Shown here piece after piece: positions 1 to 60,836 of a stretch of 64,000 bases of DNA. The translations under genes were made by a program, and so were the position numbers. The DNA lies in the NCBI RefSeq assembly GCF_030867145.1, contig NC_134454.1, positions 44,778,320 to 44,842,319 on the forward strand, read 5' to 3'. This DNA comes from Opisthocomus hoazin. Its lineage: Eukaryota; Chordata; Aves; Opisthocomiformes; Opisthocomidae. The number at the start of each line of letters is the position of its first letter. Position 1 is the stretch's first letter. The notes beneath the pieces were generated by a model. That model was not told where the DNA came from. It searched no databases and saw nothing but the letters and a program-made list of their open reading frames with translations.

Positions 1-366
1 TGGTTCACTTAAAATGCACTAATGACATATAAAGTGATACCAAGTTCAGCATCTTGTCTCAAAACAGTGACTGGCCTCAGATGCATACTCAGTTGTGGAT
101 CAACAAGGTCTCTTCTTTATCTAGAAGTGGGGGCTGTCGTAGAGTTTGAGGTGTCCTGTCTCTTAGTCTGTCTTGATGTCTCGCACGCAGCTGTAGCTTG
201 GTATTTCGCTGAGGTTCTTGCATGCTGTCATCTTGGTCTTGTGAGTTAGCCTGAATGCCGTAATCTTTACGTTTCTGTTAAGACTATAGCAGTCTCGTGA
301 AACTGTACGGATTAGAGCGAACGGGAATCATTGCTGACACTCTGCAAATTTATTTTGATGTTCCAG
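1..366 (+). other. SEMA4D: SEMA4D intron (3' part)
   Basis: No coding signal is visible. It ends in TTTTGATGTTCCAG at 366, the acceptor for the SEMA4D terminal exon. The upstream exons (sema and PSI domains) lie outside the window. Confidence 0.7.
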
Positions 367-1283
367 ATAAAGTAAGAGAGAATTCCCTACAGCATACATT
401 CAAGCATGGGAGCACAGCAGAACTCAAGTGTTCTCAAAAGTCCAATCTGGCCCAGGTAGTTTGGAAGTTCAAAGACGATGTGTTGAGAGTGGAGAGCCCC
501 AAGTACCGTCTGCTGGAAAAGGCCCTGCTCATCTTCAATTTATCAGAAGGAGACAGCGGTGTTTACCAGTGCTTGTCAGAAGAAAAAGTGAAGAATAAGA
601 AATTTTCTCAAGTGCTGGCTAAGCATGTTTTGGAACTGAAGAAGATCCAGCATACCACAGTGGGCCCCACCACGGCAGCTGCACCAACAGAAGGTAATAG
701 CGATGCGCCAAAAGCGTCAGCCATGTCAACCGCGGGGTCTACTGCTCGCTCCCCGACCACTCAGATGGTACCAGTAACGACAGCAAGGATAGTAACAAAG
801 CCCCTCGGCCCCGTGCTGACAAGCGCAGCATCCAACACGGAGCTCTTCAATTCAGTTCCGGACGCGGTCCCAGAGAAGACGATGTTCCTCAAGTCAAACG
901 ATAACTTCCTGTTGATGTTCCTCTTCCTCTTCTTTTTTATTCTATTCTTGTGCCTGCTCTCCTACAACTGCTACAAAGGGTACTTGCCAGGGCAGTGCTT
1001 GAAATTTCGCTCAGTTTTGCTGCTTGGTAAGAAGAAAACGAAGTCAGATTTTTCTGATTGCGAGCAAAGCGTGAAGGAGACGCTGGTGGAGCAAGGCAGC
1101 GTCAGCCACCAGAGCGGGGAGCCACCAAAGCCGGCGCACGACACCGGCTACGAGACTGAGCCCGACTGTGGGAATGGCCAGCTGCAGCCTGGGGATCCGC
1201 AGGCGTCCCGGGAGGGCAGGGACAAGCCCTTCGATGTCAAGTGTGAGCTCAAGTATGCTGACTCGGATGCGGAGGGGGACTGA
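367..1283 (+). CDS. SEMA4D: Semaphorin-4D, terminal coding exon (Ig, TM, cytoplasmic tail)
   Basis: This is the C-terminal part of semaphorin-4D (CD100), a membrane ligand for plexin-B receptors and, in immune cells, CD72. The exon completes an Asp codon (G|AT, phase 1) and reads DKVRENSLQHTFKHGSTAELKC, so the Ig domain starts at once, with cysteines in AELKC and GVYQC and the core Trp in VVWKF. A Ser/Thr/Pro-rich stalk follows, then a transmembrane helix (NFLLMFLFLFFFILFLCLLS) and a basic stop-transfer region. The tail ends KPFDVKCELKYADSDAEGD, a close match to mammalian SEMA4D. The ATG that opens the frame at 297 lies in intron sequence and is not a start codon. The stalk is where SEMA4D is normally shed by proteolysis (family knowledge). 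Confidence 0.96.
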
Positions 1284-20324: not shown

Positions 20325-23300
20325 CTAGGGAATATCAGAATTAAAAAAACAAAACAAAACCTGTTATTGTATAATACTTGAGGAAAAACTTAAAATCAAG
20401 AGTCACACTGATTCTCTACTTCCTCCTCGAAAGTAAGTGCTTAGGTAAGTCTGCACATGCGTGTGTTGGCATGCACACAACGCAACATCAGATGATGCAT
20501 GAAAGAATTCTTTCAGAGTGATGGGATCCACTGAGGTCCTTGTGTCCAGCCCCCGACTCAAGTAACTCTGAAGGTGTATACAACTTTAAAAAAGTGAGAA
20601 GTTTTCAGAACTTTCAATGAAGTTTTAAGTTGCCCGGTATCTGTGATGTATCTTCTTGTCTGGTGACTGTATGAGCAGAGCCGGAGGAATGTGTTTCTAG
20701 AAGTGGAAAGCCTTTACAAAACAGGAACACTTTTGGACAGAAAGATGCATCTCAACCAGGCTTCAATACAAAACTTAAGTCCACCATAGTTATAGAGTAT
20801 GCACTTGTAGAAGAAAAACTAGAGAGTATTTTCTAACAAATAGAAATAATAAGGAGCTCTGTTAAACCTCCTTCGACAAAGCAATGAGTACCACCTGCCA
20901 TCAGTGCATTTTGGAGAGCAACTGTCTCTAAGACTTTCTGAGCAAGAGCCGACCTCAGGTTTATAAAATTAGGGGCGGGGGTAGAAATCACAGAAAAACA
21001 GAAATTCTCCCCTTACTAACCACTGAAGTGTCAGGTGTCATTTGTTTCAGTGAAAATGGTAGAATTGAAGAGCACTCTGAATGAAAACTGAATGAAAAAC
21101 AAGTCAGTAAATACTCACTATAATTTGGTACATCCTCATCAGAGTCCTTAGAAGATGTTTTACCAGTTTCTGATAAGCCATTTTTTTCATATTCAGTCGT
21201 TAAGATGCTGGATTGGATTTCTCTTACTCCACCTTTAGCTTCTTCCTCTAAAGCCGCTATCATATCTTTGTAGGCCTTCCTGGCCTCTGTTGTCAGTTGT
21301 ACCATTCTATGAAAATGGTCCTATGAAAATATAAAACATTAGCAGAGCTTAAACCATACAGCAACTTTTAACATCTCCACGAAAATCTGCAGTGAATATT
21401 TAGAACGTGTATCTTCATAAATAAAAGTTGAGCACCTAAGTATGTATAAAGACATAAAAACAAATAACTTACAAGCATTTAGAAAATGACCTAATTTGCT
21501 TGAAAAAAAAAATTGGAAAGAGATCTAGATGGAGAGGATGTCAGGAAGAGATGGCCAAACTACTTCTTTGAACAGTGCTGAGTGGCTGTAATTCTGAAAC
21601 AAATTTTTCATATAAATCCACCGACCTGGGATAAAGAGTACAAGTGTACACAAGCAAAGCAAACGAAACCTGAACATCAGAGTACTTTTTCATCCCCTTA
21701 CAGGTAAAAACTAAAGCCAAACAAAAAATACAAGCCTATACCTTTCAGCTTACCTGAGCCCCATCATAGCTAAAAATTCCCACCACGCTCACAGGCACCG
21801 CTTTGTTCACACAGCGGCCTAGGGCCTTGCGATTCAGGGCAAAAACAAACGGGATATTCTGTTCACAGGCACAGTCGATAATGTTGTGTAGAGTCTCATC
21901 CAGCCCACCTGGAGCAGACAACAGAGACAGCAAACAACGACACTGTTCAAGCTGGTTGTAACTACGGGACAGTACTGTTACAAGATTGCAAAAAAATGCC
22001 CCAAGATTATGGGTACATTTTGAAATTACAAAAGTTTACAGGGGAATAAAAAAACCCCATGGCTCTCAATAACAGCGCTAGATCTCAATTTTTAAAGGAC
22101 ATTTTCACACTTTTAAAAAATTCTTAATTAGAAGTATCCTTAGACTGCTACTATTCTGTATTTTGTTATATAGTCTAATCTAGTACTAAAAAAAAGCCCC
22201 AGCTGCTAAGAAATTATTTAAAAGTTAATAGAAAGTAATGACAGTAATTACAACAAACTATCAGTGACAACTTATTGTCAATCTGTGACCTAGAAGAGAC
22301 TGATACAGCAGGACTTCTCGTGGTGGTGCAGCTGGCATCAGCAGCCTTCATCTCTTCTCAGCTGTGCCAGTGCAGCTGCACTGCAAATCGGTAACTGAAC
22401 AGAACCCAGTTTCAGGTAACTTCTCCCACCCCAGACAGTCTCGACTCAGCTCACCCTTCAGCTGCAGAGCTGTAAACAATCTGAAGGCAGCAGGCATCTT
22501 TACATGAATTCAAAGACTACTCAAATAAGTTCCTCCCATAATAATACTGCTACCAGTCTGCTTTTTTATATTTCTTTTATTAAACAAACTTTTTTTTTTT
22601 TTTTAGTTATTTACCCTTTGACTGAATCTTTTCACAGTTAGGAGAGATGATGACACACTTCAGTTTTTTCAGCTTCAGATGTTTCAAAACTTCTCTAAGG
22701 CCCATAACAAGCCTGCGTTTTATCTTGGCCTTCACCGGGTCTTTCTGATACAAGCGATCTTGGAAACGAACCAGTTCTTTCAAGAGATCTGTCACACAAC
22801 TGTCAACTTCTTTACTCAGTACCTGGCTGCAATAACTGAAAGAAAGAATCAATCAAGTGTTAAAAACCCTAAAATTACAAATAAGTAACACAAATATGTA
22901 ATATGTAAATTATGTAAAATATGAACAGTTTACCTTCTATTCTATGTCATCATCTTTTTTTCTATTTCTACTCCAAACAACACTTGTTATATACATGAAA
23001 ATAAAAATGTACTGAAGATTTTTTTCAATGGCTGAGAACTTACAGAAAGTTTTGTTACTTGTGATATCTGGCTCCCCTACCAAACTATACTAAAAATACA
23101 TACACACACATACAATAAACCTACATATATATTTTATACCAATAAATACATATGCACGTTTTTCTATTGAAGCATTTGTCTGAGGGCAGTTATTACCTAT
23201 ATTACCTACATGAATCAACGTACAGCAAGTGAAGTATAAAATTCTAATTTAGTTCTATAAACGCAAGGCTACTCATAACAAAGATGGAAATCTGGATCAA

Positions 23301-26300
23301 ATTCCTCATCTCTGGGTTCCTATTTTTTGTCTGCCATCCTATTTCACTTACCACACTACTGCCTTCTGGTGTTCATAAGGAAAGGATTAAAATGGATGTA
23401 ATTAATCCTTCTACTATTCCCTGGGAGAGATTAGGGTTCCAAATTATCTTCTTCCCCCATCTTATACACAAAGAATCATTCAGTAAAGACAGGTCCCAAA
23501 GAGAAAAACTAAAGATATCTCAACTGCACAGTCAACAGAAAGATGCCAAGTGGCAAATTCACATAAGATTATGTGAAGAGATTGCAAGATCTATCCTGGA
23601 TCTTAAACATAAAATTATCTCAAAATTTTATTTAAGTTACAGAGTTTTTATTTACTATCCCCAGTTGATTTCACTAAGTCTCAAAGACAAGTCTACTAAA
23701 ACACTGAAAATCTAATCTAAAGACACAAAATATTCTAAGCTTTGCTGAATGCTCTAGATCCTACAATAGGCAGAACCAAGTTGCCCTGTACATATTCAAC
23801 CCTAACTGTGGTTTCAGTAAAAGAGTGTTGCATAGAAACAAACCAAGTAATTTTTAATACAATTAAAAGTTAAATTAGAGATGACATATGGCATGGGGAA
23901 GATAAAAAATGGCTGTATCAGTATTAACCTTTACTACAACATGAACAGCAAAAAGGCCAGTGGTGCCTTTATAGGAGGAAAACTGAAAGTTAAAACACTG
24001 CTTACAGAATCACAGAATCACAGAATAGTAGGGGTTGGAAGGGACCTCTGTGGGTCATCTAGTCCAACCCCCCTGCCGAAGCAGGGTCACCTACAGCAGG
24101 CCGCACAGGACCCCGTCCAGGCGGGTCTTGAATATCTCCAGAGAAGGAGACTCCACAACCTCCCTGGGCAGCCTGTTCCAGTGCTCTGTCACCCTCAGAG
24201 GGAAGAAGTTCCTCCTCATGTTCAGACGGAACTTCCTGTGCCTCAGTTTGTGCCCATTGCCCCTTGTCCTGTCACTGGGCACCACTGAAAAGAGCTTGGC
24301 CCCATCCTCCTGACACCCACCCTTCAGATACTTGTAGGCATTTATAAGGTCCCCTCGCAGCCTTCTCTTCTTCAGGCTGAACAAGCCCAGTTCCCTCAAC
24401 CTCTCCTCGTAGGGGAGATGCTCCAGTCCCCTCACCATCCTCGTAGCCCTCCGCTGGACTCTCTCAAGTAGCTCTTCATCTTTCTTGAACTGGGGAGCCC
24501 AGAACTGGACACAGTACTCCAGATGAGGCCTCACCAGGGCAGTGTAGAGGGGAAGGAGAACCTCCCTCGTCCTGCTGGCCACACTCTTCTTGATGCACCC
24601 CAGGATCCCATTGGCTTTCTTGGCAGCCAGGGCACACTGCTGGCTCATGGTTAACCTGTCATCCACCAGGACACCCAGGTCCCTCTCCGCAGAGCTGCTT
24701 CTCCAGCAGGTCCACCCCAAGCCTGTACTGGTGCATGAGGTTGTTCCTCCCCAGGTGCAGGACCCTGCACTTGCCCTTGTTGAACCTCATCAGGTTCCTC
24801 TCTGCCCAGCTTTCCAGCCTATCCAGGTCACGCTGAAAAAGAGTAATACACCTTACTTATTTTTAGTGTGTACTCTGGTTTTCTGCTGCTAGACCAAATG
24901 ACAAAAGTATAAAGAATGTGATGAACCAGATGACGTTTTCGTGTTTCAGAAACTTACCTGATGACGTTTTCGTGTTTCAGAAACTTACCTGAAGTAACTG
25001 TTTCAAACTGTCATGACTGGATCTCTGACCTCCTCACCTACAGTAATGACTATTTCTTCTTTTATAAGGAAACACGTATACACATCTGTTTAAACAAAAC
25101 TTAAGTGCCGCACGCATTAACCCACAAATCTTCCCTTTATTTCTCTGCCTAGCCACAACACGAAAACGTCATCTGGTTCATCACATTCTTTATACTTTTG
25201 TCATTTGGTCTAGCAGCAGAAAACCAGAGTACACACTAAAAATAAGTAAGGTGTATTACTCTTTTTTTGAAATATTAAGCTGGTGCTCAATTTATTTAAA
25301 ACTAGGTACTTATACTTTAACAGCGACTCCTTTTCCTTCCTTAGCCTCTAATGAATTTCTGATCTTTTGTTTTCATTCGAGGAACATGCATTTTGAAGTG
25401 AGATTTACAACAATGTAAAGACTATTTCTCAGGATATCGTATCTTTGTGTGTCAGTTTACAGAAAAAATGAAAAAAAAATCCAGAACCTTCAGTCTAAAC
25501 TCCAATTAGTGTTGCACAGATTGCAACTGAAGTATCTTGTTTGAAAAATGCTATATTGGTGGCACTGTGGAAAAACAGACCTTAATATAATCAATACTTA
25601 CTCTCTAAATTTCCTACTATGGATTTTTGGAAGATTCGAGGTTAGCTGCTTTGAAGTCACAGAGCCATCTGTAGTTTCCTTGATCCCTGTGTTTGCCGGA
25701 AACCCTTCAGCAGCTTGTATTACAGGAACAGCTATCATGTAAATGAAGATATTTCAATGAAAAGACAGACCAACAAGCACTGTGAAGATACTAACTTATC
25801 AAGTATCTGTAGAATAGTCATTACTTCAGTATTTCAACAGTCTGTGGTAGTAGGGGAACAGGTCACACATTTTTGTTATCTCTCAGTTTTTGTTATTGTA
25901 CCTCTTTCTACACAGATTGCCAGAGAGATGCAGGGACTCTCATTACGACACATAATAAACCCAACAGGCATGAAAGTCTGGAACAGTAATCAGAATCCAA
26001 ATTACTCACCTACACTAACTATCAGCTTTGGCACACATTAAACTCTAGATAAGACCAAGATTTATCTTAGAAAATTCTGAAGTTACAGTTTTCATTTGGC
26101 AGTATTTGGTACATATTTTTTAAAGGACTAAGTGTGCTTACTCTCAAATCTCAACTTACACACTGTATTATAGCCTTCTCTTTAAAGATACCTGCTTGAC
26201 TACCCTGTAGAAGCGTTTCATCTTCAGTAATATTTTCTGCAGACTGACAAATATTATCTTCATCTTTTGGTACTGCTGTCTGTTGTAATAGGTGTTGCTG

Positions 26301-35300: not shown

Positions 35301-38300
35301 AATGAGTGAGCAACTTTTATAAACTAGTAAGCAACACAATATATTGCTCTGGTGAGCTGCTGCACATAGCAGAAACTTCTTCAGTCTCCAGGGTGTCCAG
35401 CAGTTCTGTGTGTATGATCCTTTCATGCTCTTCTATTTCCAAAGTATCATACAAATATTTCACCCGTTATTCACCTGGATGAGCACACAAGCATTCCCAG
35501 CAGATCAGGAGGGTCTGGAAGCTGTCCCCCGCTGCCAGAACAGATGCTGCATCCACATCATGGATTTCGGTGCAATGCATATACCCTGTTTCATGATTCT
35601 ATGCCTTTTTTTTTTTTTTTTGCCCATTTTGTCTTCAATAGTCCCATTACCTTCCTACTATTTCCATGACTCCCGCCATTCTCCTTCCGTTCAGATGATC
35701 AGTCATTTGCAGATCAGACACTGTATGGTAGCACGTAGTAAAAATGGGGATGTTCTCATGAAGGACAGAACCTGCAGATCTTTGATTCTACCCATAATTC
35801 TCTATCAAAGAGGCCTGCAAACAGTCATGTGCTGTGCTGTTCCACGACAATGAACCACACAAAAAAAAGAACATGTAGCTACAGTTCTGCTCCATGTTCC
35901 ATGTTAAAATGTACGCACAGAAGCCAGCCAGGAAGGCTTCTTTATGCTGTCATTTCACAGACTGAACATTATGTACACTAGATCAAACATGTAAGTCACC
36001 ACATATACATAGTGGCTGTACAATATTGGGCTTTCAGTGAAGCACTGTTAAACCACGGACCATACAACAATTCTCTAATGTGGTACAGCCTAAAGCCTTC
36101 ATGATACTGATAAACAAAAGCATCAAAATACTAATATGCATATTATAGCGATATGAATTAAAAAAAAATGGAACTAGCAATCAGGAATACAGCAGAGACA
36201 ACTGTGCTACACAGAAACTGTTTCCAGATGCGAGATGAGTAGAATTGTAATACTAGTACCTTGTTCTTTAAAACTGTGGCACACTATAGTACCCAGCGTA
36301 TTCCCCGTACCCTTGTGCACTTTGCTTTCTGCAACTGTTACTACAGAGTATTTTTAATTTAGGAAATGTGACTTTTATTGTTACCTATTAACACCGAAAC
36401 TCTCAGATGCATCATTCCAAATCTGCTCCTAAATCACTGTGCTCAGTGAATACATGGTAAGTCAAAGTGCACAACCGTTCTCCATCAGTAACTTCTAACA
36501 AACAGTTCAAATGAAATGGACCTGAACCAATAACTCTACAAATGTGACTTGAACTTAGATTTGTACAAAGCTGTGTTAACATCTGGACTTAAAATACACT
36601 CGTAACACTTAAAAGAACAGCAACAAAACCTTCTTCACTGTACCTCAATCCTTGGTGGTTCCTGTATTGTAGTAGATTCATTCTGAGGTTTCTCTACATC
36701 AGTGGGTGACTTTGTTTTTTTCTTCTTTTTCTTCTTTTTTTTCTTCTTTTCTGACCCTTCTTCAGGCTCAGTTTCACTAGCATCATTCTTTGTTTCTGAC
36801 TGCTGAAAAATATCATGAGGCACAACCATTAGAAATTCATTTATTTCAACACCACCTACCAAAATAAATGCAAGTGACCATACTTCTACAACTAAAGGCT
36901 ATCTTAATCCATCCAAGCTAGGACAGTAAGTGGGCAAGGAAAATTCAAGATGTCTTAGAAATTTAGAGCTACTGCAAAAACTCTTCATTTGAAGCATGTT
37001 GCAGTTATCAGAACATATCAGGACTACTGAGATTTCAATAGGAAATATCCACCCAAATAAGGCAAGAGTTCAGGTTTCATGTCTCATTCCAAGAGTCAGG
37101 AATTTGAAAAAAGTTCAGCCTAAAAGTAATGTATTCAAATCAGCTATTTTGGAAGTTCATCTTGCTAGAGTAGCATTGTCTTTCTGACATCTTGTTATTC
37201 TTTTCCACTACAAGAGAAGAAAAATTCTAGTAAGCACAAGCTAACTTTATATTACTTCTTAAAAGCTACATTAGAAGGAGACACTGTACAGAGCCTAGGA
37301 AAAAAATGGCAATGTCTCACATCAAGAGACACAATCGCACAGTCACAGAAATTAGTTTAGAGCAGACAATTCTCAAGCACCTTTGCTTCACTATCCTGCT
37401 TCCCTTTGCCTCTGGAAAGACCTTCAGATGCTGGTGACAACACAATTTTCTTTGGGGGCTGTGAAAGTACCATGGCCCAAGACACATGTGGCTGAGCAGA
37501 GCCATCTGCAGGTGTTTGAGGAAATGCTGTTGGGAAAAATGATGTACAAAGATATGTCAAAAACACTTCTCAAATATTCAAAAGGATCAGTAATGAGTTA
37601 ATCAAGGACTACCAAATACAGCAGAGAGCTAGATTCCTTCTGAGGAAGGACTGAAATAAGGTACTCACTCACACATGTAATTTCCCCAGAAAGCTTTCTA
37701 GAATTGTAACTACTTCATATATTGTCTGGCACTATATACATACACTTAGCCCAATTAAATTATAATTGGAAATCTATACTGTGTCATACTAACACGTACA
37801 AATAATCCCATGCTCATTTACTAAGCTATTTTTCTTTAAAATTATGAACTTCTGCCATATTTATACGCAAAATTCCTTTAATATTTATCTCACGCAGTCA
37901 CACAGCTTTCATGTACAAGGCCATATCAGTATTTTCTACTTTCTAAAAACTTCCGAGTTTTACAGACATACGTACTAGCTGAAAGACTTCCTAATGTGTC
38001 TCACTGTACAAGAGTTTCACCCACTACCACTCAGAGGTATCAATGTTTTGAAAGAACTCACAATTAATTTTGTAAAAATTCCTAACACACAGCAAATACA
38101 GAACAAAATCAAAATTTTTCTTGAAGAATGAGAAAAATTTTCACTGAACAATTAAATATCATAATGGGTTTACATGGCAAGGTTTTGGTAGCGTGGGGAG
38201 GCTGCAGGGCTGGCCTCTGTGAGAAGGTGGACGCTGCCAGCCCCAGCTGGCTCCAAAATAGATGCACTGCCAGACACAGCTGAGCCCATCCGAGATGCCA

Positions 38301-48976: not shown

Positions 48977-50642
48977 TGTTGTGAATGAGTGGTTAGGTTG
49001 CCTAAAGCATCACCATCAAAGGTGCTTGCAAGAAATTATTTTAATGGAAATTTATAAAATATTATTTAACAAAGTTCATTGGCAAGGTTCACTCGGTTAC
49101 TTATTAAATGAATGGAATACGAAATTGAGATAGAATTAAAATAAAATGATTTATGCAGAGACTGAAGAAAGTTAGAAGGGATAAGGGAGACCCTAACCCG
49201 TTGAGCCACAAGGCTCGGAATGGACCCGCTGGCTTTCTCAGCTCCTTCTCAGAGAGGAGCTTAGGTGCGGCTGGATCCAGACTTCACCCTAGACTGCAGC
49301 AGTTTATGTTTAAAGCATATGTCTGGCAGCAGTTTAAGGTTGGTTCACAGTTGGAGAGAGAGAATCACAGAACTTCAGAGTTCAAGGGCTCCAAGAGGCA
49401 TCCCACTCAGAGGGAGACACTGGGTGCAGCCCGCAGTGGTCCAGAAGAGCTCAGAATCAGAATCACAGAATCACAGAATAGTAGGGGTTGGAAGGGACCT
49501 CTGTGGGTCATCTAGTCCAACCCCCCTGCCGAAGCAGGGTCACCTACAGCAGGCTGCACAGGACCTTGTCCAGGCAGGTCTTGAACATCTCCAGAGAAGG
49601 AGACTCCACAACCTCCCTGGGCAGCCTGTTCCAGTGCTCTGTCACCCTCAGAGGGAAGAAGTTCTTCCTCATGTTCAGACAGAACTTCCTGTGCCTCAGT
49701 TTGTGCCCGTTGCCCCTTGTCCTGTCGCTGGGCACCACTGAAAAGAGCTTGGCCCCATCCTCCTGACACCCACCCTTCGGATATTTGTAAGCATATATTA
49801 GGTCCCCTCGCAGCCTTCTCTTCTTCAGGCTGAACAAGCCCAGCTCCCTCAGCCTCTCCTCATAGGAGAGATGTTCCAGTCCACTCACCATCCTCGTCGC
49901 CCTCCGCTGGACTCTCCAGTAGCTCCTCACCTTTCTTGAACTGGGGAGCCCAGAACTGGACAGAGTACTCCAGATGGGGCCTCACTAGGAGAGTGTAGAG
50001 GGGAAGAAGAACCTCCCTCGACCTGCTGGCCACACTCTTCTTGATGCACCCCAGGATCCCGTTAGCTTTCTTGGCAGCCAGGGCACACTGCTGGCTCATG
50101 GTTAACCTGTCGTCCACCAGGACCCCCAGGTCCCTCTCCGCAGAGCTGCTCTCCAGCAGGTCCACCCCAAGACTGTACTGGTGCAAGGGGTTGTTCCTCC
50201 CCAGGTGCAGGACCCTGCGTTTGCCTTTGTTGAACCTCATCAGGTTCCTAAAAAGGCTCAAAGGGCCTCACTCAGGGGCTGTTTATAGGGTTGAAAGATG
50301 ATTGACTGTGGCCAGTAAATTTCATCCCAGACACAATCTGAGTTGGTAATCACTGGAATTCTCAAAATTCCAGTACCACTTGTACCAGTCCACCAGAGTT
50401 ACAGTCCAGGTAGGATATGCTCCAAGGCTGTCAGCAGGTGACTGATTATTCCCACTCTCATTCCCCACCTTAGCCAGGCAACCAGAGCTCCTGGTGCCAT
50501 TCCCCCCTCAGCCTTGCAAGCGTTCCTGGTATGGTCAGGGGACGATTAACCACCAAACTCATTGTGCAGAGGCAAACACTTGATGGGGATTCCTGAGATA
50601 GTAAAGCAGTTCAGGAGACGTGAGGGGAGCTGTACCACCGCA
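48977..50642 (-). repeat. ERV 3' LTR, interrupted by CR1
   Basis: Direct copy of the LTR at 56830-57914, bounded by TG...CA. It lacks a block of nearly 300 bases present in the other LTR (about 57215-57490) and carries an 0.8-kb CR1 insertion. TATAAA on the minus strand is kept at 50282-50287. Confidence 0.9.
49453..50249 (-). mobile_element. CR1 LINE fragment inside the 3' LTR
   Basis: 5' truncated CR1, sense on minus, with the same RT C-terminal frame as the 24-kb copy (frames 50261-49860 and 49930-49544). Its 3' octamer tail is at 49453. GCTCA occurs on both sides and may be a short target duplication. It inserted after the retrovirus. Confidence 0.94.
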
Positions 50643-50835
50643 TCACACCCCATGACTAACATCAATCTCTCTCTTCACAGAGTGGCAGTGTGGTCGCCGC
50701 TTGCTGCTGTGCCTACAAACAGAGTAATACTATATTCCAGTTACACTTTGATGGAAAATTTGGTTGGTCTGTAGAATTATTACAATTTGCTAAATATGAT
50801 TAAGCAACCTTATACATGCAAGAAGGATTTTGTAG

Positions 50836-51678
50836 TCATGTTACTTGTCGAGCTATCTTCCACACCCTAGCATATAGGCAAATGTTTAACAACAGAGATA
50901 ATATAACAAGAGTCAACAGAACCACGGTGGGTTGTAGCATCTGATTCAGTATTTCAGTCTCTGTTGGAGACCACCCGAACAAAGTATCCCACCGGTGATG
51001 TTCCCCATCTTTCTTCACTCTTTTGAGGACATGGTGTATCTTCTCTGTAGCATGATGGATGGTGATCAGATTTCTTTGTCCGTTGTTCAGGATTTGCTTC
51101 AGCAAGTGATTCAGGTCATCACGCTGCAACAGTTCTTTCACCAATGAGAGGTTCATCCCAATAGGGGTATGATATGATATGATATGATACGATACGATAC
51201 GATACGATATGATATGATATGATGCATAGTTGGATTGTAGCAATTGATGGGTTGTGACAGGAGCTGAATAGTTGAAATTGCATCCTGAAATTTTGATACT
51301 ATTACAAATACGGGTATTGGAGAGACTATGTATATCTACAGTGGTGTTGTTTATAGATATAAAATTACAAAGGGTTCTCATGCAAATACATCCATTTCTA
51401 ATATACATGAGTGTGGTTTCAGGCGTTTCATTAGGGTGTATTTCAAAGTGATAAATATTTTGTTCAGTGTCAAGACAAATGTCTTGAGCCTTAATGGTAT
51501 TACTTACACAAATAAATCCCTGTTGTTCCTGCACAATGCATGCATCAACATAGACAGTTTGCCACTTATTCCCCTTTTTTTGGGCCCATACTCTGTGTTC
51601 TAATGGACAGAGTATGGTTGCATGATGATTTAATCCCAACACAATAACTTGGTGTATATATAGTGTATATCGAAGCAT
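50836..51678 (-). pseudogene. ERV env, transmembrane-subunit remnant
   Basis: A 280-codon open frame. It ends in a hydrophobic membrane anchor (VVLLTLVILSLLLNICLY) and a short basic tail, preceded by a heptad-like helical stretch and several Cys residues. It is in a different frame from the upstream env pieces, so there is at least one frameshift. A pentanucleotide repeat is translated inside it. Confidence 0.78.
51168..51225. repeat. Pentanucleotide microsatellite (TGATA/CGATA)n
   Basis: About eleven units: four TGATA, four CGATA, two TGATA, one TGATG. Translated on the minus strand it stays open and gives Ser-Tyr-His-Ile-Ile-type repeats in the env remnant. Confidence 0.95.
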
Positions 51679-51877
51679 TGCTTATTGTCCAAACAAACGC
51701 TGTGGCTTTGCTGTTAGTGGGATTGTAGGTGAGACTAACTAGTTGCCACCAGGACTGGAATTCCCTTTCAAATTTGGTTGCATTATTCCAAATTATCTTT
51801 CAAATTTCAGCGCAGAAGGTGCCTTCTTCACCTTCTCTTACAGTTGCTGCCACAGTTGATTGTACCCACAGGTGAGC

Positions 51878-52411
51878 TTAAATATGTCTAAGAGCAAGAG
51901 AAACATTAATTTGGGTTGCACCTAGTGCATTTACAATTGATTGATTGTCCTTTTCACTGATTCTTTCCCACTGGGGTAGTATATTAGATAAGAGCTGTTG
52001 ATCAGTTCCCAATGCTGACAGAGAATATTGTAATGGTTGGTTTAATTTGTATAAATTACTTGTTGCTGAGCTTATTCTGTTTGATAGAACTTCAGCATCT
52101 ATGCCATTTAGCACTCCTAATCCAGTTGCTAAGACACCAGTCACATCTTACCTTGATCGTTCTAGAGAGGTGAAGGTTCGTCCATGTAGCTGTGCTAACC
52201 ATTCTGTATAAGATGTATCCAGGAATGGTGAGCAGGTCAGTTTAATTGCAGAAATATTAACCTGCATTGACAATTCCACTTGTCTGAGAGACCATGAGGG
52301 GTTACACTTGCTGTTGTCCTGTGCTTTTAATAATGGAGGGACCAGTGTTATAAATGTGAGGAGACAGTTCGATAGGAGGCTGAGTTGGTGAATATAATCA
52401 TTCAATACCAC
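51878..52411 (-). pseudogene. ERV env, middle remnant
   Basis: Two adjacent frames (52411-52148 and 52144-51878) in the same phase, separated by a stop. The second has an Ala/Gly/Leu-rich start (VLATGLGVLNG) that could be a fusion-peptide-like or helical region of the transmembrane subunit (inference), followed by a coiled-coil-like stretch. Confidence 0.65.
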
Positions 52412-52915
52412 TTTTGAATTGAAAACCTCAGATGGAGTGAGAGTTGGGATCTGTCCAAAGGCACATTATGAGTGTCGGATGTGGTATAGTGAACATATAC
52501 CAGCTTTCATTTTAGAAAGGACAGGTATGTATGTATTGTTTTCCCTCAACATAATGTGTAACAATGTGTAAATCTGCTATCATGCATTCAGTGTGATTTT
52601 CAATTCAACATCCTACTAAGACAGTGTCTCCTTCAGTTCCCTTTAAAGATGGAATTGGTGGGTCTTCATTGTCATCTTTAATATTCCATTCTTGGCTACA
52701 AAAAGTTATGTTATGTTATTGTGTAGTACTATTGTAGATAAATTTTGATCAGGTATAGGTACGTCAAGAAGCATGTACACATCATTCCATGGCTGCCCCG
52801 TTGTACACAAGTTCCACATTTTTTGTTCAGTAATCATAAAATCAAACAATAGTTCTATACCATGTTTCCCCCAGAGGCAGAATGGAAGTACAGGTTATGT
52901 AAAAGTGAAATTGTA

Positions 52916-53305
52916 CTAACAATCTGTTTCTGGTATATTAGAAGCAGATTTCCCATTGTTTCCTGTTTTGGAAAAATTGGTGTAATATGTTTTAATTTCC
53001 ATGGGTTTTCCGTGGGTAGATCCATTGACTGCCCAACACCCTATTTTTACCTCTTTCCCCAGTGTGGCCTGGAGTGATAAAATGTGATGAATGTTAGTGT
53101 TATTGTACGATATTCCAATTCCTTTGTTCAGCATTTCCCATATCCATTCCTGCTTTAGATATGCCTCATCTCCGTGCATAACTAAAGTAGCAAGGTTCAG
53201 ATTTTTTTTATCATTTGATGGGATCCCAGCACTTCCAGTATGATTTACTAGGGCATGGTCCCAAGGGTCTTGTGCATGAGCTGTCCACGGATTTTGTGGC
53301 TGCAC
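52916..53305 (-). pseudogene. ERV env, surface-subunit remnant
   Basis: A 129-codon frame with several N-glycosylation-type sites (NHT, NNT, NGS, NFS) and scattered Cys and Trp, as expected for a retroviral surface subunit. It lies directly after the integrase remnant and in the same frame as the middle env pieces. No intact env can be read. Confidence 0.65.
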
Positions 53306-53407
53306 TGGAAGGATTGTGCTTATCCCAATTAAGAGGAAAAAAAAGGCTCAACTGGGGACACACTGCTGTCGTCATTGTTGCATCGGTGTAGAGTCATTTT
53401 CTCCTGT

Positions 53408-53428
53408 AAAAAAAAAAAAAAAAAAAAA
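53408..53428. repeat. Poly(A) run (21 bases)
   Basis: An uninterrupted A tract on plus between the env and pol remnants. Confidence 0.95.
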
Positions 53429-53461
53429 GTTTTGGTGGGGAAGGCCAAACAAGTTACCCCT

Positions 53462-53884
53462 TTATGATGCAGGATAAATCCACCTAGTAGTTACTTTGTG
53501 TTTTGCACCACTACTATCAGTAGCTTCCCAAGCAAGTGGGCCAAGAGGTTTAATTAGAGTTACAAGCACATTTCCAATCTGTGGTAAATTAACTGTGACA
53601 TGTTGTCCTGGTTGTAATGTTAGTGAACATTTTCTTTTGTTGGAAGGGGGAGAACAAAGCTCGGCTTTTGCAGAGAATGCTTGGCTTACAGGACTCCCAG
53701 CAGGTCCACGCCAGTTATTCAGCTGGTGAAGTGTTTTGGGAAGTCGAGTGTCCCACTGTACCTCGGGTGGTTTAAGGCTTTTTTTCAATAAGCCATTGGC
53801 TCTTTCTGCCATCCCATTTGATTGAGGATAATAGGGGATATGAAACACCCATTCAGTTTCTTCCCACTTTGCCCATTCTTGCAC
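53462..53884 (-). pseudogene. ERV pol, integrase C-terminal half
   Basis: Contains the integrase core signature YYPQSNGMAERANGLLKK, including the catalytic Glu (in AER), followed by the C-terminal DNA-binding part. The frame is not continuous with the upstream integrase piece at 54243-53977. Confidence 0.85.
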
Positions 53885-53976
53885 TTTTTTACATGTAAAA
53901 TGTGAGAGTAGTCACTCCAGATGACATCAGGAGTAGGCAGGCTTGAGAGCGAAGATGATAGCCCTCATATCGTTTT

Positions 53977-54243
53977 TCATCCATCGGCTTTCTGACACCC
54001 AGTCTCCGTAAGCAAGCCACAGACTACTTCTGCTCCTGCAAGGATATATCCATATCCTGCAGAGGATTTAAATGGCCTGATATGATCAGTTGGCCACATA
54101 GACCACAAAATTTTCCCTTGATTGATATGTAGAGGTGCTGCTTTAGCAGGGTGATTCATTTGCAATTTCAATTTACATAGGGGACATTCTGTAAGAACAG
54201 TTTCACAAGTTTTTCTGCTTAAAGGCCAACCTCGACTTTGCAA
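53977..54243 (-). pseudogene. ERV pol, integrase N-terminal half
   Basis: Shows CPLC of the zinc-binding segment and MWPTDHIRPF, where the Asp is the first catalytic residue. The second catalytic region follows in another frame near 53.93 kb (reads SDYSH where SDxG is usual). Confidence 0.8.
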
Positions 54244-54450
54244 TGAAAAGTTCTTCTTGGCCTGTGTGACCTGATTGCTGATCTAACCACTCCTCCTCAG
54301 GGTCTAGCGTATTCTGTTTTCATTTCCCTAATTCTGGCTAAGCCATCTACTTGTTGGTTCCAATTTCTGGCTTGTGTGTTGTCTTTGGCATGTGCCTTTA
54401 CCCATGCCATACTAAATGGTGTTTTTTCTACCTGTGTGTAGCAATAGTTG

Positions 54451-55190
54451 CTAATCTTCAGTTCTCCAAACTGGGGATCTATTTATTTCCCAATTTAAGA
54501 CCTCCCATTGACTGAGCCATTGGGTGGCACCTGCCCATAGGGAATAGGAATTGACATAGGCAGCTTTTGCTTGATTTTGTGCTGCTAGAACAACTGCTTT
54601 TAATTCTCCTACTTGTGCACTGTGTTGCCCTCTTCTGTTGTTTACTGGTGTTAATTTCTGATGTGGCAGCGCTGGATCGCCACTGGCCATTTATTCTTTT
54701 TGCTGAGGCAACACTAAGCCAGGTGACCTCAGTTGGTGTTTCCTTAGTGAAGAGAGGTGCACTGAGGACTGGTGAAGGTTTAAATGACTGTTTTGGTGCT
54801 AGTGGATCTGCATTTATAGGCACGTGAAATTTGGAGATTTTTTGTGTGTCCCTCAGTCAATTGCATTTTATCTGCTGCTCCCACCAGGTAGGCATACCAT
54901 TTCCAGGTGGTGGGTTTCTGTGCAATTCCTTCAGGAGGAGTAGTTCCTTTTAGCACTGTTTCTAATAAATTAAATGGTTCTCTTGCTTGAACTGGTTGCT
55001 CCTGACGTATTTTGCCAACTTGCTTACCTGCTTGAACAAAGGATAAAAGTATCTCTTCCCATTCAGAGTATCTTTGCTCTGTTTCTTTAAATGTGGTTGA
55101 ACTGAAGAACAGTGGTCTCTCTGGTCCGTCCAGGACAGTTTGAAATAAATTACAGCAGTAAGTATCATGTTCCGCAAAACCCCATTCCAC
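54451..55190 (-). pseudogene. ERV pol, RT connection and RNase H remnant
   Basis: Frames 55190-54780 and 54690-54451 carry the connection domain and RNase H (QHSAQVGELKAVVLAA with the catalytic Glu; SLWAGATQWLSQWE). The usual TDS motif reads VNS, so a catalytic Asp is lost. Confidence 0.75.
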
Positions 55191-55744
55191 TATAACAGGG
55201 TCACGGGAGTGTATGGTCCCAGTGATTCATATGTTTTTAATTCTGGTATTAGGGTCATGACCACCTCCTTATGCCCCAAATGCCATTTCCATGTTTTTCC
55301 CATCTGTAAAAGTGAGTACAGTGGATAAGCAATTACAGAAAATCCAGGTACATGTTTTCTCCAATATCCTACGGTACTCATAAGTTGTTGGAATTCTTTT
55401 CTAGATTGGGGCATTTGTAATTGTTCTGTTTTACTTAAGGTGTCCAGTGGAATTGCTGCACTACCTGCAATCCACCAAGTACCTAAAAATTTTACCTCTT
55501 TGCTTGGTTCTTAATGTTTTTCAGGTGGAACTTCAACTTCTGCATTGTGTAATTCTTGCCACACTGCTTCCCCCACCTTTTCAGGGGGAGTCATTCTGAT
55601 TAGAATGTCAGATATATATTAGTATGGTTTTACATCTGGAGGGAGTGAGATTGTCTGTAAAAGTTCAGCAAATGCAGCATGAGCAGTTGTAGGTGAGTGT
55701 TTATAACCCTGTGGAAGTCTATTAAAGGTACACTGTACACCTTT
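55190..55744 (-). pseudogene. ERV pol, reverse transcriptase palm and thumb remnant
   Basis: The LPQGYKHSPT motif reads at about 55.71 kb. The catalytic YxDD position reads YISD, with an in-frame stop two residues before it. The frame resumes at 55414-55190 with the QSRKEFQQLMSTVGYWRKH segment typical of the RT thumb. Confidence 0.8.
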
Positions 55745-56301
55745 CAAGTAACTTCAAATTTCTCTTTATCCTTTCCATGTAAGGGGACCATAGAGAACAT
55801 ACCCTTTACATCTAATGTCACCATCCGGGGGCTTGCAGCTGCTTGCAAAGTAGCTGTTAAGTTTGTAATGTTTGGTACAGCGGCTGTTAGTGGAGCTGTA
55901 TTACCATTTAGGCACCAATAATCAACAGTTAAACACCACCTCCTATCTGGTTTTTGGACCGGTGCAGCCTGCTGTAGGTGACCCTGCTTCGGCAGGAGGG
56001 TTGGACTAGATGACCCACAGAGGTCCCTTCCAACCCCTACTGTTCTGTGATTCTGTGATTCTGTGAGTGGGTTCTGGAAATAATCTGTCGCTTTTTCCAA
56101 ATCAGCTATCACTTGAGAAATTCCAGCCCATGCTGCAGCAGAAACTGGATACTGTGGGGCATTGGTAATCTTTGAATCACGAGTGCGGGAGCTGTGTGGG
56201 GCACACATGCTGTAGCTTCCCAATTTTTTTTTTAGGGTTAGCATTGATATCTGATCCAAAAGACCACACACTGCTGTCCGACAAACACCAGGCTCATCCA
56301 T
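55744..56301 (-). pseudogene. ERV pol, reverse transcriptase N-terminal part with CR1 insertion
   Basis: The frame includes WCLTVDYWCLN and TLDVKGMFSMVPL, the first RT motifs including the first catalytic Asp. About 33 codons in the middle are translated CR1 sequence (55963-56066), which by chance keeps the frame open. Confidence 0.85.
55963..56066 (+). mobile_element. CR1 3' end inside ERV pol
   Basis: About 104 bases of the CR1 3' end, sense on plus, ending in three ATTCTGTG-type octamers. It is the same subfamily as the 24-kb and 49-kb copies and is heavily 5' truncated. Confidence 0.93.
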
Positions 56302-56808
56302 TTATAACATCAAATCCCAAAATATTTTCGTTGTGATCTTTAACTGCAAAGCGAGTAGATGACATGCGTTTCTTGCCAGGGAGCCATAAATTAACTTTTA
56401 CAGTTTGGGAAATAGCACTTGCTCAGTTTACACCAGTAATTTTAACTCTCTGCCATCTGTGTCGTGTACCCAGCTTCTCACCCTTTTGTTATGTCAGTAC
56501 TGAAATGTGTGACCCCATACCTATGAGAAATTTTGCTAATTGTTATCAAGGTCTGACTGGGATTAAAATATATGGGCCATTATGATGTATCCATTGAGAA
56601 GATTCCACTTGCCAGACAGACCCAATTGTCATCCAGACACAATTTGTTTTTTGAACCAGGCGGGAAAAGATTTATTTGAGTCCTAGCCACCTGTAGTTGC
56701 TTTTCCACAGCTTCCCAGTCACTCCAATTATCACAAGCCCATTCATCTGAGAATGCTGGAAGTGGACTTATTCCATTCCTTTATAAGCAATCAGTGACAC
56801 TACTTGCC
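56302..56808 (-). other. ERV leader and gag/protease remnant
   Basis: About 0.5 kb between the primer-binding site and pol. I read only short broken frames (for example DNWSDWEAVEKQLQ, then ENILGFDVING). A normal gag needs 1.5-2 kb, so most of it is deleted. Confidence 0.55.
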
Positions 56809-56826
56809 ATCCTGCTGACTACGCCA
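56809..56826 (-). other. ERV primer-binding site, tRNA-Ser-like
   Basis: Minus strand TGGCGTAGTCAGCAGGAT, three bases inside the 5' LTR. It is complementary, apart from one base, to the 3' end of tRNA-Ser (…ATCCTGCCGACTACGCCA). Confidence 0.75.
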
Positions 56827-56829
56827 ATT

Positions 56830-57914
56830 TGTCACGAATGAGTGGTTAGGTGACTTAAAGAATCACCATCAAAGGTGCTTGCAAGAAATTATTTTAATAA
56901 GAATTTATAAAATGTGATTTAACAAAGTTTGTTGGCAAGGTTCACTCTGCTACTTATCAAATCAATGAAATACAAAATCGAGGTAGGATTAAAATAATAT
57001 GATTTATGCAGAGACTGAAGAAAGTTAGAAGGGACAAGGGAGACCCTCCTCTTGAGCCACAAGGTTCAGAACGGCCCCCCTGGCTTTCTCAGCTCCTTCT
57101 CAGAGAGGAGCCTAGGTGTGGCTGGATCCAGACCTGGCCTTAGACTGTAGCAGTTTATGTCTAAAGGATATGTCTGGCAGCAATTTAAGGTTTGTTCAGT
57201 TAGAGAATCACAGAAATTCAGCAGTAATTAATCATTGGTTAACTCAGTATTTAAAGTGATTAAAAAGAATTTGCAACAGTCACAGTAAGAGGATATTATG
57301 ATTTGAATCAATTCACACACATGCCCGCAAACAATATGCCCAGATGAAGGTACCTGTTAAAAATCCCCAAGTTCAGTGGAATACTCACTTCAGCTGATTT
57401 TCATCAACAGGCGAAAGTGAAGCCTCAAGGAGTGAGGGATCCCTGTAGTTCAGCCCAGGTAACCTCAAACTTTAGTCTGAAGTGCTCTGAAAGGCGTCCC
57501 ACTCTTCCCTACCCAGATACTGGGCACAGCCTGCAGCGGTCCAGCAGAGCTCAAAGGACCTCTCTGGGCACCGCTGTTTATAGGGTTGCAAGATGACTAT
57601 AGTCAGTGAATTTCCATCCTGGCCACAATCTGGACTGGTAATTACTGGAACTCTCAAAGTTCCAGTAACGCTCATACTGGTCCAGGTAGAGTATGTTCCA
57701 AAGCTGTCCAGGGATGACACAGTTCCCCACCTTGGCCAGGCAACCAGAGCTCCTGGTATGGTCAGTGCTATTCTCCACCTCAGCCCTGCAAGAGTTCCTG
57801 GTATTGTCAGGGGACACTTAACCGCCAAACTCATTGCACCGAGGCAAAGACGTGACAGGAATTCCTGAGACAGTAAAGCAGTGCAGGAGAGGTGGGCCGA
57901 GCTGTACCACCACA
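56830..57914 (-). repeat. ERV 5' LTR
   Basis: 1,085 bases, TG...CA, homologous over its length to 48977-50642. TATAAA on minus at 57578-57583 puts U3 at about 330 bases and leaves a long R/U5. Confidence 0.92.
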
Positions 57915-58560: not shown

Positions 58561-60706
58561 CTGTGGAAATAAAATTGAACAAAGTGTCAGTCTGTCCCCC
58601 AGGTCTCAGTTACAGGGATCTCTTCTGTTTAAGAAGGCTTGAACAATAGTTGAAGCTTGCTGTAAAATAACAAACAGATTAAGATGACAAGTCCACAAAT
58701 ATGGCTGTATGTGTAGTATTTAGAGAACAACTTTGCAGTAACCTTACAACAGTCAAACAGGTGCTTTGCAAGTTTTATACCAAATATTGGCAGTATCAAA
58801 TTTAACATACTTACAGGAAGAAAGTACTAGGAAAAAAAATACAACAGTATTTTAAGTGAGTATTGGTACTGTCTTGCTACATTAGGCTATTTGATGAGCT
58901 TTGTTACTGTAACTTAGACTAACAAACTGCTGATGCTGTCCTTGTTAAGTATATAGTGTCAGGCATCAGCAAAAGCCACTTCAGTTAATACAGCCAGCTT
59001 ATATTATTATTTGACTTGGTTGTAAACACCTCCAAAAAAGCCCAAAGTATCAAAGTTGCCCAGCTGAGAGAAACACGGGAATGTTACTCTACTTTCTTCA
59101 CCTGGTTCTTCAGAAACTTGGAACTCCATGCCATTGCAATTCATCTATCACCAGTTACTTTTCAGTCAGGCTTGCCAATGGTAAGTTATCTAGAATGGCT
59201 GTTCTCAGAACATCAGTTTTAGGACTTCACACCCCATTAATTGAATGACTCATGCTGCTTTTAGTAGGCTGCATGGCTAGAGTTCAAAGTATACTGTAGA
59301 CTTTTCAGAACACTAATACAAAACCTTGTCTATGTGAGCATACATTACATTTTTGCACAGAAAGCAAGTGTGTCAGCTTTATGATTTAAAGAAATGCTGC
59401 TACGTAAAGCTTGGTTCAGTCACTGAGATACCAGTATTATTCAAGAGCTCACACGAAGCCAACTTCCATAGGCAGAGGTAGGAATGTTTTCCAGTCAGTC
59501 ACGTTTTGTCTGTTGATAGACCACACACACCTAGGACAAGGCTAGCATTTTGCCGTTCTGGGAGCAAGATGTGAAGGTTTTAAATAGAGGCTGTTATGTT
59601 GCCTTTGTTGACAAACAGCTGAAATAGCAAGGAGATAAAGAGTCTAAACATTCGGTAGTGAATTTCAGCTAGATTCCACTGCAGGAGCAATTATGTATTA
59701 CATACTTCAGCTGAGCACCAGGCAGTTGATATTTTTGATTCTCTTGTTCATCTAACTCTGTTCAGGTGTGCTTACCTGGCTCATGGATCATATAGTGAAC
59801 CCAGCCAAGACTTTGCTGAACACCAAGTCGTCTCCACTCTTCTTCAGACATTAGATGGGATTTTGGCACTTGTTTTAGAAGTTCTCTCGGCAGCATCACA
59901 TGCCTGTAGACACAATTGTTAAACACATGCTACATACACTAATGCCCATGTCTACACCAAAAGACAGTAAGCAAGTTCAGTTATGAATACTAGAATTCCC
60001 TATAAAGCAGTGTAGGGTGCTGACTGACATCACTAATTTGATTATGAAGCATCTGTCCCAGAACCCAGTTTTATATTCACTTTGTCTACTAAACATTACA
60101 TCTGTCTTGCAACTGTGTATTAAAACAGTCGAGACTACAGCGCTGGTTTGGAAAGACAGAATAGCAACATCACTTTGATCTGTCAGCTGAGGAGAAACAT
60201 GCAGCCTGCTCTAAAGTTCCTTTACCACTTTAACAGAAAGCCAAGCATTCGGTCTTGCTTTGGAGATCGCAAGTCAGCTGGTAACAGGGACACTCAGATC
60301 CCTACACAGGAAAAAAAAAACCAAGCCCGGCTCCGGGGAGGCGCGGCGGACCTGGCCCCCCTCCCCCCCTCCAGCGCCCTCTGCTCGGGGCGCGCGCCGC
60401 CCGCTCTCCCAACGGCCGCCCCGGGTGAGGGGGTGGGGGGGGGTGGCAGCACGGGCCCGCCCCCCTCCCGCCAGCGGGTCGAAAGCAGCGCACAGACCCG
60501 CTCCGGAGAGGCTCCCCCCTTCCCCCCCCGCAGGCCACAAGCCCCTCGGCCCCCGCGGGAGAGGCGCCCCGCCCCCCCCCGCCTCTGAAATGGCGAGCAG
60601 GAGCCCCTTCCCGACCCCCTGCGGCCGGCCCAACAGCAGCCTCGTACCGGTACTCGTACTGCTCGTCGAAGTATTTGTCGGAATAGTAGATCTGCTTCTG
60701 GGCCAT
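58508..60706 (-). CDS. CKS2: Cyclin-dependent kinase regulatory subunit 2 (whole gene)
   Basis: CKS2 binds CDK1/CDK2 and reads phosphothreonine on CDK substrates, promoting multisite phosphorylation and meiotic and mitotic progression. Three exons (60706-60648, 59903-59776, 58560-58508) join to 240 bases, exactly the 79-residue family length. Residues: [20 protein letters not shown], then HVMLPREL...[20 protein letters not shown], then [20 protein letters not shown]. Phe/Gln in [10 protein letters not shown] and the DEQK ending identify CKS2, not CKS1B. Expression is expected to peak in G2/M; the promoter carries matching elements. Confidence 0.98.
58561..59775 (-). other. CKS2: CKS2 intron 2
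   Basis: 1.2 kb, AT-rich. The 68-codon plus-strand frame at 59016-59222 is unsupported. Confidence 0.7.
59776..59903 (-). CDS. CKS2: CKS2 exon 2
   Basis: 128 bases between GTCTACAG (acceptor) and CCAG|GTAAGC (donor). Encodes [20 protein letters not shown] and [20 protein letters not shown], including the Arg/Ser/Trp/Arg anion-pocket residues. Confidence 0.98.
59904..60647 (-). other. CKS2: CKS2 intron 1
   Basis: 0.74 kb. The half near exon 1 (about 60320-60647) is extremely GC-rich with C/G runs and belongs to the CpG island. Long frames on both strands here are compositional. Confidence 0.75.
60423..60450 (+). other. G-run cluster in CKS2 intron 1
   Basis: GGGTGAGGGGGTGGGGGGGG on plus: four or more G runs separated by one or two bases, a classical quadruplex-prone pattern. 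It lies on the template side for the CKS2 transcript. Confidence 0.6.
60648..60706 (-). CDS. CKS2: CKS2 exon 1
   Basis: ATG at 60706 in a G/C-rich context (GGCCATGG-like on the opposite strand). Encodes [19 protein letters not shown] plus two bases of Arg; donor CCG|GTACGA. Confidence 0.97.
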
Positions 60707-60836
60707 GGCGGGCAGCGGTGGCGGCGGCAGCGGCCGAGGCAGCAACAGCCGGAGGGGCAGCGGCAGCAACAACTAAGGGGCTCGCACGACAGGAAGCAGC
60801 GCGCAGACTAACCGCCCGCTTCCGCACCCCGCTCCG

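What the first reader, a model, noticed from the sequence alone, without database searches (positions are those of the whole stretch)
24836..25266. 110-bp perfect inverted repeat abutting a CR1 5' end
Bases 24836-24945 are the exact reverse complement of 25157-25266. The left arm starts precisely where the CR1 at 24006-24835 is truncated. On the CR1 sense strand the order is original flank, spacer, inverted copy of that flank, then CR1. This suggests that during insertion the growing strand switched template to nearby genomic DNA and copied it backwards: a fold-back join at a LINE 5' end, not classic twin priming. Perfect identity argues for a recent event, and the hairpin sits in a SECISBP2 intron.
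Basis: partly seen in the sequence, partly recalled or inferred. Interest (0 to 1): 0.75.

Follow-up and report, generated by a model that had tools for sequence, protein, structure and literature searches.

The report
Fold-back scar at a CR1 insertion
A jumping element (CR1) in an intron of the selenoprotein gene SECISBP2 carries at its broken end a 110-base mirror copy of DNA lying a few hundred bases away, most likely a long repair scar left when the element inserted.

Summary
Bases 24836-24945 are the exact reverse complement of 25157-25266 (110 of 110), the longest perfect inverted repeat in the window; the next is 44 bp, between CR1 copies. The left arm abuts the 5' end of a minus-strand CR1, inside one 2,766-bp intron of SECISBP2.

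Two features were missed. A 31-bp tandem duplication straddles the inner end of the left arm; its one mismatch is explained by ACC(A/T)GA slippage. The 5-mer CAGAA, where the CR1 tail meets its flank (24005-24009), recurs one base past the inner end of the left arm (24947-24951). A CR1-type 5-bp target-site duplication would lie there if the left arm is filler and the right arm its template (chance 1.4-2.4% by a strict rule, about 15% by a lax one).

I favour flank copying during 5'-end joining of the CR1 (0.55): a long case of the known flank-templated 'extra nucleotides' at LINE 5' junctions. Perfect identity dates it only weakly. A later template switch, an older repeat cut by the CR1, and an assembly artefact remain possible. 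No related genome, reads or even the window's own assembly could be reached.

The parts
24005..24835 (-). 5'-truncated CR1 LINE; its 3' tail (CTGTGATTCTGTGATTCTG) is at the low-coordinate end and its 5' end at 24835
   Evidence: 94.5% over 795 columns to the CR1 at 49458-50249; similarity to the 63-kb copy reaches 24825; last 10 bases by recall only
24005..24009 (+). CAGAA, candidate left copy of a 5-bp target-site duplication, also matching the CR1 3' tail repeat
24836..24945 (.). left arm of the inverted repeat, inferred to be the copied filler
   Evidence: 110/110 reverse complement of 25157-25266
24925..24986 (+). two tandem copies of a 31-bp unit across the inner end of the left arm; the single mismatch arises if copying slipped at ACC(A/T)GA
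   Evidence: slippage product reproduces the sequence letter for letter
24947..24951 (+). CAGAA, candidate right copy of the target-site duplication (repeated at 24978-24982 by the tandem duplication)
   Evidence: found within +-2 nt of random intron positions in 1.4-2.4% of cases; by a lax any-5-mer rule about 15%
24946..25156 (.). 211-nt spacer: second tandem copy plus native intron; holds two CAG|GTAAGT donor-like motifs on the minus strand (about 24988 and 24957)
25157..25266 (.). right arm, inferred to be the native template, 179-288 bp from the inferred insertion point
22836..25601 (-). SECISBP2 intron that holds CR1 and inverted repeat
   Evidence: exon ends and splice sites read; protein identity

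Best explanation
The left arm is 5'-junction filler of the CR1 insertion. Target-primed reverse transcription started at CAGAA on the plus strand (pairing with the TTCTG repeat of the CR1 RNA tail) and stopped inside the element. Before the free cDNA end was joined to the other side of the break, a strand was extended by copying the neighbouring flank (25157-25266) in inverted orientation, and was then joined one base before the right-hand CAGAA. The copying strand was either the cDNA jumping into the A/T tract at 25262-25268, or the broken flank end snapping back on itself. A 31-bp direct duplication arose at the same join, at that time or later, because it unites arm and flank sequence. Shown: geometry, perfect identity, tandem duplication, position of CAGAA. 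Inferred: direction of copying, timing, enzyme.
For: The arm edge coincides (within the 10 bp tested) with the CR1 5' end, which separate events would not predict. Past the CR1 the left flank does not continue the arm: 23005-24004 against 25267-26300 gives no reverse-strand match better than E 1.5. CAGAA lies one base past the arm's inner end (strict chance 1.4-2.4%). The sister CR1 shows the same layout in small: GCTCA at 49449-49453 and 50256-50260, with 6 extra bases AAAAAG between CR1 end and right copy. Literature passages seen: CR1-like L2-clade LINEs give 3-5 bp duplications, said to be very similar for the CR1 clade (PMC4245944); about half of zebrafish L2 inserts in chicken DT40 cells carry extra nucleotides, many copied from flanking DNA (PMC4760211), with template jumping proposed (PMC2666801). 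Fold-back insertions of 2 to about 150 bp occur at yeast breaks (PMC11724301).
Against: CAGAA is only 5 bp, is also the CR1 tail word, and a lax rule finds an equally good 5-mer at about 15% of positions. The arm-flank join has no clear microhomology and one unexplained base (24946). Arms 0/110 against about 12 of 755 private non-CpG changes in the CR1 gives P(0) 0.034; treating the 3 unresolved sites as CR1-private gives 0.015; if half of the 12 predate the insertion, 0.19. Most fold-back insertions in yeast are under 14 bp, so 110 bp is long. Of 5 CR1 5' ends tested only this one shows a fold-back; the other 4 gave 7-8 nt.
Confidence: 0.55

Rival explanations
1. Post-insertion replication template switch. 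The CR1 was already present; a replication fork ran along it, switched to the opposite strand at the A/T tract, copied 110 bp backwards and returned at 24946, deleting whatever CR1 5' sequence and flank lay between.
For: Zero arm differences against about 1.6% private change in the CR1 leans to a younger arm (P 0.034). Template-switch copies reach 128 bp in great apes, median 12 (passage of PMC7954356). Inverted duplications are the commonest human inversion class outside mobile-element events, 277 events, median 284 bp, mostly with 1-15 bp microhomology (passages of PMC12350158).
Against: The return point one base before CAGAA, and the start at the CR1 5' end, become coincidences.
Confidence: 0.22
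2. Older inverted repeat or opposite direction. The left arm is native intron; the right arm was copied from it, or a longer repeat existed and the CR1 insertion deleted the outer part of the left arm.
For: In this reading the left arm runs natively into the spacer, and the 31-bp tandem duplication needs no special timing. LINE insertions can delete target DNA (recalled).
Against: Needs either a coincidence of arm end and CR1 end or an insertion deletion; no CAGAA-like repeat at the CR1-arm boundary (longest shared word 3 nt).
Confidence: 0.13
3. Assembly or library artefact: a chimeric fold-back read or collapsed allele was built into the contig.
For: Perfect identity and inverted orientation are what fold-back chimeras give; no reads could be seen.
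Against: An artefact would not be expected to end at a CR1 5' end, to be followed by CAGAA, or to carry a 31-bp tandem duplication at the same join. No N in the window.
Confidence: 0.1

Closest known systems
5' extra nucleotides (5' EX) at LINE junctions, annealing pathway (ZfL2-1/ZfL2-2 in DT40 cells)
   Same: Extra sequence between a 5'-truncated LINE of the CR1/L2 group and its flank, copied from neighbouring DNA, with a short target-site duplication expected.
   Different: Far longer than the 'several' extra nucleotides described in the passages seen, perfectly inverted, template 179-288 bp away, plus a 31-bp tandem duplication.
Fold-back templated insertions at double-strand breaks (yeast)
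   Same: A broken end copies its own flank in inverted orientation and is joined to the other end; lengths 2 to about 150 bp (PMC11724301, passages).
   Different: No inverted microhomology visible at the join; loop 211 nt against 41 nt in their example; here the other end is LINE cDNA.
Short-range template switch mutations (four-point model)
   Same: One event makes a perfect hairpin (abstract of PMC8794818; passages of PMC7954356).
   Different: Sits at a LINE 5' end; ancestral sequence unknown.
LINE twin priming and dual priming
   Same: The opposite broken end primes synthesis and gives an inverted segment next to the LINE 5' end (passages of PMC2837659).
   Different: The inverted segment is host intron, not LINE or its tail.

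Membership tests
Flank-templated 5' extra nucleotides of LINE insertions | extra sequence lies between the LINE 5' end and the target flank | tested here: met
   24836-24946 lies between the CR1 5' end and the candidate right CAGAA; the CR1 end is tested to within 10 bp
Flank-templated 5' extra nucleotides of LINE insertions | the extra sequence matches nearby flanking DNA | tested here: met
   110/110 inverted match at 25157-25266
Flank-templated 5' extra nucleotides of LINE insertions | target-site duplication of about 3-5 bp brackets LINE plus extra sequence | tested here: inconclusive
   CAGAA pair; strict chance 1.4-2.4%, lax about 15%
Flank-templated 5' extra nucleotides of LINE insertions | extra sequence absent from the empty site in a relative | not testable with these tools
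   no vertebrate relative held; the window's own assembly was unreachable in 8 requests
Classic LINE twin priming | inverted segment is LINE sequence | tested here: not met
   no match of the arm to any CR1 copy in the window; best other hits 25 nt at 84%, E 0.018, outside the CR1 copies
Replication template switch mutation | perfect inverted copy within a short range | tested here: met
Replication template switch mutation | event independent of, and later than, the CR1 insertion | tested here: inconclusive
   P(0 arm differences) 0.015-0.19 depending on how CR1 changes are assigned
Curated RNA gene or known hairpin RNA | match to an Rfam family at gathering score | tested here: not met
   0 matches in the whole window

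The most novel reading that the evidence does not exclude
The template was the host gene's own nascent pre-mRNA. CR1 and SECISBP2 are read in the same direction, and the source (25266 to 25157) lies upstream of the insertion point in transcription, so the nascent SECISBP2 transcript would have been present there. The minus-strand 3' end left by second-strand cleavage could have primed reverse transcription on this RNA (a dual-priming variant of twin priming) and stopped in the A tract at 25262-25268, where the copy met the CR1 cDNA. The product is exactly the observed antisense copy of intron next to the CR1 5' end. It would be a LINE insertion that recorded a piece of the transcript it landed in and so built a transcribed 110-bp hairpin in one step.
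Probability: 0.1. Interest if true: 0.7.

Novelty: new variant of a known kind. Interest (0 to 1): 0.42.

Why it matters
How a LINE's 5' end is joined to the chromosome is still unsettled. A junction carrying both a long inverted copy of the flank and a direct duplication would be a readable record of that step, and shows how one insertion can create a long perfect hairpin in a transcribed intron. The intron RNA would fold with a 110-bp stem (MFE -237.2 kcal/mol, z -21.9 against 100 shuffles), a possible substrate for RNA editing; that effect is inference only. If the pattern recurs at other CR1 5' ends, the joining models become testable from genome sequence alone.

Tried and rejected
The loop first looked as if it held an exon (minus strand ...CTTCAG|GTAAGT); the neighbouring SECISBP2 exons join in frame without it, so I treat it as a chance donor-like motif, duplicated by the 31-bp repeat. 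Rfam gave nothing in the window. Two pattern scans of viral contigs for more CR1 copies found none. Continuation of the arm on the far side of the CR1 was looked for and not found. A fold-back start by inverted microhomology of the flank end was considered by eye; no convincing pairing was seen. Dating by CR1 divergence is weak: 41 differing columns of 791 between the two CR1 copies were split with distant outgroups into non-CpG 12 private to this CR1, 14 to the sister, 3 unresolved, and CpG 2, 5 and 5; the denominator 755 used is my approximation (768 non-CpG columns less 13 non-homologous leading columns). One search tested 5 of the 6 CR1 copies; the 47-kb copy was left out, and the 5' ends used for the 32- and 63-kb copies are approximate. 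The lax background (2,980 positions) includes a few positions that overlap the query itself and is slightly inflated. Eight paper searches were answered; none listed a LINE 5' junction described as a long fold-back of host flank, but the library lacks many papers (one on L2 5' junctions was not held), so this is no claim that none is in print.

Full report
Observation. The two arms are exact reverse complements over 110 nt with 211 nt between them. Among perfect inverted repeats of 20 nt or more in the window it is the longest; the next rows, 44 nt, pair CR1 copies. At 60 random anchors the longest match in the same kind of test was 20 nt. The pattern is real in the sequence given.

Setting. 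The minus strand carries SECISBP2: exons upstream and downstream join in frame as ...KFRD|YCSQVLSKEV..., giving an intron from 25601 to 22836 (2,766 bp), and the protein matches SECISBP2 of PDB 7zjw (E 1.8e-69; 122 residues from two joined exon readings). CR1 and gene are read in the same direction. The CR1 is 94.5% identical over 795 columns to a sister copy at 49458-50249.

A 31-bp unit is tandemly repeated at 24925-24955 and 24956-24986. The single mismatch (ACCA against ACCT) is what slippage between ACCAGA and ACCTGA gives; building that product reproduces the window letter for letter. The unit spans the inner end of the left arm. If the left arm is a copy, the duplication is therefore not older than the fold-back. 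Second, CAGAA at 24005-24009, at the edge of the CR1 tail, recurs at 24947-24951, one base past the inner end of the left arm. The passages of PMC4245944 give 3-5 bp as the L2-clade duplication length, very similar for the CR1 clade. If CAGAA is the target-site duplication, everything from the CR1 end to 24946 is filler and the right arm is the native template. Strict background for CAGAA within two bases of a given point is 1.4% (1,100 positions) and 2.4% (2,330 positions); for any shared 5-mer or longer it is about 15% (2,980 positions, slightly inflated by self-overlap). The sister CR1 shows a similar layout, GCTCA on both sides with six extra bases AAAAAG, though the same lax chance applies to it.

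Age. Of 41 differing columns between the two CR1 copies, non-CpG changes split into 12 private to this CR1, 14 to the sister and 3 unresolved; CpG changes into 2, 5 and 5. At 12 per about 755 sites the arms should differ at 3.4 places if they are as old as the CR1; none do (P 0.034; 0.015 if the three unresolved changes are private too; 0.19 if half of the 12 predate the insertion). So the arms are of the same age as the CR1 or moderately younger. Gene conversion between arms could also keep them identical.

Mechanism. Three routes give the same letters. (2) The minus-strand 3' end of the broken flank snaps back and copies itself from 25157 to 25266, then meets the CR1 cDNA at the T tract; fold-back insertions of this kind, 2 to about 150 bp and mostly under 14 bp, are described at yeast breaks (passages of PMC11724301). 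(3) The same 3' end copies the nascent SECISBP2 pre-mRNA, which runs through the source before it reaches the insertion point; dual priming by a second RNA has been proposed for primate L1 (passages of PMC2837659), and antisense chimeras with mRNA have been linked to twin priming (passages of PMC13174262). Against all three, the join at 24945/24946 shows no clear microhomology and one base is unexplained.

Comparison with known kinds. [quoted passage not shown] template jumping was suggested (passages of PMC2666801). The present case works like these but is longer, fully inverted, and draws on DNA 179-288 bp away. Classic twin priming is excluded as a label because the inverted segment is not CR1. 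Ordinary template switching could make the same hairpin after insertion: up to 128 bp in great apes (passages of PMC7954356), and inverted duplications with median 284 bp are common in people (passages of PMC12350158).

Consequence. The RNA of 24836-25266 (minus strand) folds into the 110-bp stem at -237.2 kcal/mol, z -21.9, 0 of 100 shuffles as stable. No Rfam family matches in the window. A function is not claimed.

Limits. The window's own assembly could not be reached in eight requests, and no vertebrate relatives or reads were available, so direction, timing and freedom from artefact remain inferred. In the window no other CR1 tested shows a fold-back (4 others tested, 7-8 nt; one at 47 kb not tested; two 5' ends approximate).

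Noticed in passing
49445-50260: Sister CR1 copy with candidate 5-bp duplication GCTCA on both sides and six extra bases AAAAAG at its 5' end.
   Followed up: partly
about 49009-57758: Direct repeats about 7.3-7.9 kb apart flank minus-strand open frames that look like endogenous retrovirus pieces; a CR1 fragment at 55956-56067 lies inside. Described only.
   Followed up: no
24952-24957 and 24983-24988 (minus strand): Two copies of a consensus-like splice donor CAG|GTAAGT inside the loop, doubled by the 31-bp duplication; could act as decoy donors.
   Followed up: no
36644-36802 (minus strand): SECISBP2 exon with an uninterrupted run of lysine codons (KKKKKKKKKKK), possibly variable in length.
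   Followed up: no
282-1283 (+) and 60302-60772 (-): Neighbouring genes look like SEMA4D (immunoglobulin domain by Pfam, name by recall) and CKS2 (by recall; no Pfam match to the mechanical frame).
   Followed up: partly
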